Source of the DNA: Candidatus Korarchaeum sp. | GTDB lineage: Archaea > Korarchaeota > Korarchaeia > Korarchaeales > Korarchaeaceae | Assembly: GCA_020833055.1 (NCBI GenBank) | Contig: JAJHQZ010000002.1 | Coordinates: forward strand, 62,001-126,000 | DNA: 64,000 nucleotides | Direction: 5' to 3' | In this document: positions 21,672-22,615 of the stretch, in pieces | How the letters are laid out: each line of letters begins with the position of its first letter | Position numbering within the stretch: position 1 is the first letter of the stretch | The notes under the pieces: generated by a model | Databases searched by the model: none | What the model saw: the letters and a program-made list of their open reading frames with translations, nothing else | Told to the model about the DNA's origin: nothing | Position numbers and translations under genes: made by a program

Positions 21672-21769
21672 CGACCCACCTTGGGATCAGAGAATATAAT
21701 GATGTTGCTTTAAGTACTTAGGGGGAGCTCACGGAGGGCCGGAGGGGTCTCACCGCCTTCCAGAGGATA

Positions 21770-22615
21770 TTGAGGGAGGCCTTAGAGCAGATACCCTATG
21801 GAGAGGTCACCACCTTCAAGATAATAGCTGAGGCCCTCGGGGATGGGAGAGCCGCTCTAGCGGTCAGAAACGAGTGCTTGAAGCTCTCCAAAATAGATCC
21901 AGATATCCCCTGGTGGAGGGTAGTCTCATCTAAGCTCGAGCCCATGCCAGGGGCTGAGGAGAAGCTGAGGGAGGAGGGGGGTATCGAGAGAGCGAAGATT
22001 GGGAAGTTCTTCAGGGAGTTAGATGTATGGCCTATCTTCAGAGTCATGGCATCTGATCAAGTGAAGCTCTCTGAGAGGTTGATCTTGAGCGAGCTCGGGG
22101 ATGTTAGCGTAGCAGCTGGAGTCGATGTGAGTTACATCGATGACAGAGCCGTGGCTTGTTGCGTGACTGTCGATGAGGAGCTAAATATCGTAGAGGTGAG
22201 GTACGAGAGGTTCTCACCCCAGATACCGTACGTACCGACTTACTTAGCTTTCAGGGAATTGAGGGGGATGTTGCCGGCAGCTATGAAGTGCGACTTCGAT
22301 GTGATATTCGTTGATGGTCACGGGATACTCCATCCAAGGGGCTTAGGAGAGGCCTCCCATCTGGGCTTGCTCTTGGGTAAGCCGTCTATAGGAGTAGCGA
22401 AATCTAAGCTAGTCGGGGAGGTAGAAGGGGGCTACGTTAAGTTCATGGGTAGGGATGCCGCTGCCTTGTACAGAGGAGGGTTCGTATCACCCGGACATCT
22501 ATCGGACCTTGAATCAGCTTTAAAAACTGCTATAAAATTTTGGAGGGAGGGAAATCAACCTCTCCCTCTGAAACTCGCCCATTCACTCTCTAAGATCGCT
22601 AAATCCTCAGATTGA
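21770..22615 (+). CDS. nfi: Alkyltransferase-like (ATL) domain fused to endonuclease V
   Basis: Residues 1-90 are the DNA-binding domain of O6-alkylguanine-DNA alkyltransferase ('QIPYGEVTTFKIIAEALGDGRAA', split by its helix-turn-helix). The active-site PCHR is replaced by 'PWWRVV', so no alkyl transfer is possible; this is an ATL protein. Residues about 100-281 are endonuclease V ('VAAGVDVSYIDD', 'VRYERFSPQIPYVPTYLAFRE', 'FVDGHGILHPRGLGEASHLG', 'IGVAKSKLVGE'), which cuts near deaminated adenine. The start is doubtful: family homology ('LTAFQRIL') continues upstream of TTG 21770 to about 21749, yet no ATG, GTG or TTG lies between there and the stop at 21719. Confidence 0.9.
   Translation: MREALEQIPYGEVTTFKIIAEALGDGRAALAVRNECLKLSKIDPDIPWWRVVSSKLEPMPGAEEKLREEGGIERAKIGKFFRELDVWPIFRVMASDQVKLSERLILSELGDVSVAAGVDVSYIDDRAVACCVTVDEELNIVEVRYERFSPQIPYVPTYLAFRELRGMLPAAMKCDFDVIFVDGHGILHPRGLGEASHLGLLLGKPSIGVAKSKLVGEVEGGYVKFMGRDAAALYRGGFVSPGHLSDLESALKTAIKFWREGNQPLPLKLAHSLSKIAKSSD

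What the first reader, a model, noticed from the sequence alone, without database searches (positions are those of the whole stretch)
21749..22615. Alkyltransferase-like domain fused to endonuclease V
One gene joins a catalytically dead AGT domain (PWWR instead of PCHR) to a deaminated-base endonuclease. ATL proteins flag bulky O6-alkylguanine for other repair routes. Fusing this sensor to EndoV suggests a direct cut near alkylated bases, coupling two lesion types.
Basis: partly seen in the sequence, partly recalled or inferred. Interest (0 to 1): 0.6.

Follow-up and report, generated by a model that had tools for sequence, protein, structure and literature searches.

The report
Endonuclease V with hollowed-out alkyltransferase domain
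This gene from a korarchaeon-type archaeon joins an intact DNA-nicking repair enzyme, endonuclease V, to a relative of the alkylation-repair protein AGT; such fusions were already known, but here the AGT part has lost almost everything it needs to detect alkylated DNA and yet is still strongly conserved.

Summary
One open frame (21722-22615, +) encodes an AGT/ATL-type DNA-binding domain (Pfam PF01035, 49 bits) followed by endonuclease V (PF04493, 138 bits), with PWWR where AGTs have PCHR. It is not a frameshift or an artefact: every readable EndoV gene in its family is fused in the same order. It is not a new kind: AGT-EndoV (Ferroplasma) and archaeal ATL-EndoV fusions are in the literature, and I found the same fusion in Thermoplasmata, Micrarchaeota, Diapherotrites, Njordarchaeia and several bacteria.

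The 'alkyl-lesion sensor' reading is weakly supported. Against 45 fusions from other lineages, this domain has lost the active Cys, the arginine finger (Leu), the base-flipping Tyr (Phe), the Asn hinge, the catalytic His (Trp) and part of the lesion-pocket loop. ATL proteins normally keep the finger and the Tyr. A separate PCHR AGT sits elsewhere in the genome, and no UvrA was found. Even so, the domain is under purifying selection about as strong as EndoV's. Best reading: an EndoV whose AGT-derived arm now positions or stabilises the nuclease and no longer reads O6-alkylguanine. A modestly interesting variant of a known fusion.

The parts
21722..22615 (+). Whole open frame, 297 codons plus stop. 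Start uncertain: TTG at 21770 is the only standard start codon; ACG at 21731 lies where the sister genome has ATG.
21749..21985 (+). AGT/ATL-type winged helix-turn-helix domain (residues 10-88)
   Evidence: Pfam PF01035; similarity to Ada 1sfe and Atl1 3gva; confident predicted fold
21815..21817 (+). Phe32, at the position of the base-flipping tyrosine (Y114 of human AGT)
21857..21859 (+). Leu46, at the position of the arginine finger (R128 of human AGT)
   Evidence: invariant Leu in 13 of 13 genus members
21908..21919 (+). PWWR motif replacing PCHR (Trp64, Trp65)
   Evidence: W64, W65 and R66 invariant in the genus; W64 invariant in the family
21986..22057 (+). Linker; the fastest-changing part of the protein in most pairs compared
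22058..22594 (+). Endonuclease V domain (residues 113-291), catalytic set D135, E179, D198, K227 and H259 present, wedge motif PYVP present

Best explanation
The gene encodes an endonuclease V that should nick DNA next to deaminated bases (hypoxanthine), with metal-dependent chemistry carried by the intact EndoV domain. Its N-terminal arm descends from an active AGT that was already fused to EndoV. In the korarchaeal family the arm first lost the alkyl-accepting cysteine (Cys to Trp); in this genus the arginine finger, the catalytic His and part of the lesion-pocket loop are gone too. The arm most likely remains as a fixed accessory module that binds or orients undamaged duplex, or otherwise supports EndoV on DNA, without flipping or reading O6-alkylguanine. 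Alkyl repair in this organism is likely done by the separate PCHR AGT. Shown: the fusion, the residue losses, their placement on the tree, the purifying selection, the separate AGT gene. Inferred: EndoV activity, and what the arm does.
For: Residue table: fusions outside the family keep Y114 in 45/45, R128 in 43/45, N137 in 41/45, C145 in 43/45; in the Korarchaeum-type family Cys is Trp in 20/20, R128 is Leu in 15/20, N137 is absent in 20/20, and His is Trp throughout the genus. Stepwise loss on a well-supported tree: one origin of Trp145 (98/91), one of Trp146. dN of the ATL part equals that of EndoV (median ratio 1.0 over 77 pairs); ATL omega is 0.00-0.08 in eight of ten unsaturated pairs and 0.27-0.28 in the other two. 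A canonical PCHR AGT lies elsewhere in the genome and in most relatives checked. EndoV residues intact. AlphaFold2 gives one compact two-domain protein, pLDDT 96.6, pTM 0.91. Cys was also lost in other fusions: Ser in L063, Ala in L075, Thr in L067/L070.
Against: A leucine can serve as an intercalating wedge in other repair enzymes (own knowledge), so base flipping is not excluded. The window's ATL domain has net charge -2, which does not favour strong DNA binding. No binding or cutting data exist for this protein. The tool gave no interdomain error map, so domain orientation rests on pTM alone.
Confidence: 0.5

Rival explanations
1. ATL-type sensor: the domain still flips or grips O6-alkylguanine, perhaps with Leu46 as wedge and Trp64/Trp65 lining the pocket, and hands it to EndoV, which cuts nearby.
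For: Cys to Trp is the usual ATL change and the Asn hinge is missing in ATLs as here (PMC10779285). Basal family members L007, L010 and L013 keep PWHR and the arginine finger, so they look like true ATL-EndoV fusions. The domain is under strong selection. The review already proposes EndoV as the incision nuclease.
Against: Arginine finger, base-flipping Tyr and PWHR His are all replaced in this genus, and the loop after the motif is shorter than in PCHR fusions. No UvrA is detectable in the genome, so a hand-off to bacterial-type excision repair is unlikely.
Confidence: 0.2
2. Structural remnant: the arm no longer touches DNA and is kept because EndoV in this lineage folds or stays stable at high temperature only when packed against it.
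For: High-confidence single packed unit; net negative arm; loss of nearly all DNA- and lesion-contact residues; invariant positions include hydrophobic ones such as F13, F32, L46, W64 and W65.
Against: Lone EndoVs in other families of the same phylum do without such an arm, and the helix-turn-helix is still predicted to fold.
Confidence: 0.25
3. Assembly or gene-calling artefact joining two genes.
For: The start codon in the window is non-standard or truncated.
Against: Same fusion in every readable gene of the family, from many separate assemblies, with purifying selection across both domains.
Confidence: 0.01

Closest known systems
AGT-EndoV fusion of Ferroplasma acidarmanus (Kanugula et al. 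2005, as cited in PMC10779285)
   Same: Fusion of the C-terminal half of AGT with endonuclease V
   Different: The Ferroplasma protein repairs O6-alkylguanine; here Cys, His, Tyr, the arginine finger and the Asn hinge are all lost
Archaeal ATL-EndoV fusion (reported by Tubbs et al. 2009, as cited in PMC10779285)
   Same: Alkyltransferase-like domain without the cysteine joined to EndoV; possibly the same lineage, which I could not check because the paper is not held
   Different: No experimental data found in the held papers; the loss of arginine finger and Tyr in this genus is not mentioned in the text I read
Stand-alone ATL (S. pombe Atl1, PDB 3gva; E. coli ATL)
   Same: AGT fold without the cysteine, Trp in its place, no Asn hinge
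   Different: Atl1 keeps Tyr, the arginine finger and PWHR; the window has Phe, Leu and PWWR
Endonuclease V (Thermotoga maritima, PDB 2w35)
   Same: Catalytic residues, PYxP wedge and fold
   Different: Extra N-terminal AGT-derived domain

Membership tests
Alkyltransferase-like (ATL) proteins | AGT fold with the active Cys replaced, usually by Trp | tested here: met
   PF01035 hit; Trp64
Alkyltransferase-like (ATL) proteins | Arginine finger conserved | tested here: not met
   Leu46, invariant Leu in the genus
Alkyltransferase-like (ATL) proteins | Base-flipping tyrosine conserved | tested here: not met
   Phe32
Alkyltransferase-like (ATL) proteins | Asn hinge missing | tested here: met
   No Asn at the hinge
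Alkyltransferase-like (ATL) proteins | Tight binding of O6-alkylguanine DNA | not testable with these tools
   Needs an assay
AGT-EndoV fusion | AGT C-terminal domain followed by EndoV in one frame | tested here: met
AGT-EndoV fusion | Active PCHR cysteine | tested here: not met
   PWWR
Endonuclease V | Catalytic acidic set, Lys and His, PYxP wedge | tested here: met
   D135, E179, D198, K227, H259, PYVP
Endonuclease V | Cuts near hypoxanthine | not testable with these tools
   Needs an assay

The most novel reading that the evidence does not exclude
The genus-wide PWWR/Leu domain is a re-purposed AGT fold with a new recognition role, for example a leucine-wedge sensor of a different lesion or DNA structure, that targets EndoV.
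Probability: 0.15. Interest if true: 0.6.

Novelty: new variant of a known kind. Interest (0 to 1): 0.3.

Why it matters
It gives a natural series from active AGT-EndoV, through ATL-EndoV with the arginine finger, to a hollowed-out arm that selection still maintains, and the cysteine has also been lost in other fusion lineages. That makes it testable whether the value of the fusion lies in alkyl repair or in how the AGT fold helps EndoV hold DNA.

Tried and rejected
Frameshift or split gene: rejected, the family is uniformly fused. Viral spread: no encoded relative in viral contigs. Plasmids: matches to EndoV, none covering 80% of the query. Hand-off to UvrABC: no UvrA over the cut-off in the own genome; the hits are ABC-ATPase-level only. 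The fold search listed EndoV structures first and then unrelated nucleases, and no solved structure of the fusion turned up. The 2005 and 2009 primary papers and the 2011 review are not held, so statements about them rest on PMC10779285.

Full report
What is there. The frame 21722-22615 (+) is open for 297 codons. Pfam places PF01035 at residues 13-74 and PF04493 at 119-287, both over the curated cut-offs. The AGT active-site motif reads PWWR at 21908-21919. EndoV keeps the residues that align with the Thermotoga catalytic set, including the PYVP wedge.

Not an artefact. In the same phylum, 27 of 29 genomes have EndoV; in the window's own family every gene that is not cut by a contig end is fused in the same order, while genomes of three other families (f2, f3, f4) carry a lone EndoV in open frames of 231-248 codons. 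A scan of GTDB genomes found the fusion in Thermoplasmata and DHVE2, Micrarchaeota, Diapherotrites, Njordarchaeia, Bipolaricaulota/Acetothermia, Fraserbacteria and Pirellulales. The literature already describes AGT-EndoV in Ferroplasma and an archaeal ATL-EndoV fusion, with the idea that EndoV is the incision nuclease (PMC10779285).

What is odd. Against 45 fusions from outside the family, the Korarchaeum-type family (20 sequences in the table) has Trp in place of the alkyl-accepting Cys in every case. In the genus, the arginine finger is Leu, the base-flipping Tyr is Phe, the Asn hinge is gone and the catalytic His is Trp. The loop after the motif, which forms part of the lesion pocket in AGTs (own knowledge), is shortened. 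The alignments to Ada and to Atl1 place the Leu opposite the Arg in both. The review says ATLs keep the arginine finger and tyrosine, so this domain fails two of the ATL tests.

Order of events. A tree of 68 fused proteins puts the family in one clade (bootstrap 98, SH-aLRT 91), next to PCHR fusions of Micrarchaeota and Diapherotrites (that join 90/64). Within it the PWHR members that keep the finger (L007, L010) branch first, then L013 with Arg beside L008/L009 with Lys, then L012 with Arg beside L019/L022 with Leu, and the PWWR genus. Trp145 arose once and Trp146 once; the finger position needs 5 changes over the whole tree. The root is a midpoint root and motif columns were not removed. A tree of EndoV domains alone also groups the family (SH-aLRT 89). 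Cys is replaced elsewhere too: Thr in L067/L070, Ser in L063, Ala in L075.

Still selected. Within the genus the ATL part changes as slowly as EndoV (median dN ratio 1.0 over 77 pairs). Of ten pairs with unsaturated dS in both parts, ATL omega is 0.00-0.08 in eight and 0.27-0.28 in two. F32, L46, W64, W65 and R66 are invariant in all 13 genus sequences. AlphaFold2 predicts a compact protein with pLDDT 96.6 and pTM 0.91, with a long helix at residues 34-50 of the modelled construct.

Context. The genome has a second, separate AGT with PCHR, arginine finger, Tyr and Asn, and so do most relatives whose locus I could read. UvrA was not found (assembly 99.5% complete).

Conclusion. The fusion is real and known in kind. 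The sensor reading is possible but weak for this genus; I favour an accessory arm that helps EndoV, with a purely structural remnant as the main rival.

Noticed in passing
window:21731-21770 and loci L016, L024, L026, L028: The fusion's start codon shifts within the genus: ATG in L024, an apparent TTG in L026 and L028, possibly CTG in L016, ACG or TTG in the window.
   Followed up: partly
window:24059-24157: tRNA gene on the - strand, 99 bases with an ambiguous four-base anticodon in ARAGORN, possibly intron-containing; Rfam tRNA at 34.3 bits.
   Followed up: partly
window:22599-24044: 481-residue ORF on the - strand without a Pfam match, overlapping the 3' end of the fusion gene by 17 bases.
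   Followed up: no
L054, L055, L065, L066, L068, L069, L073, L078, L080, L082-L085, L087, L092, L093, L101, L102, L106, L108: Twenty of 45 other AGT-EndoV fusions keep the cysteine but have Tyr (12), Phe (1) or Arg (7) at the catalytic His, as in PCYK and PCRR; whether they are active is open.
   Followed up: no
L004 (G003, another family of the same phylum): Fragment reading GVHRV followed by EndoV, a likely further fusion with the Cys replaced by Val, cut by the contig end and with one TGA in the EndoV frame.
   Followed up: no
L074: PCHR fusion with Met at the arginine-finger position, so the finger can be lost while Cys is kept.
   Followed up: no
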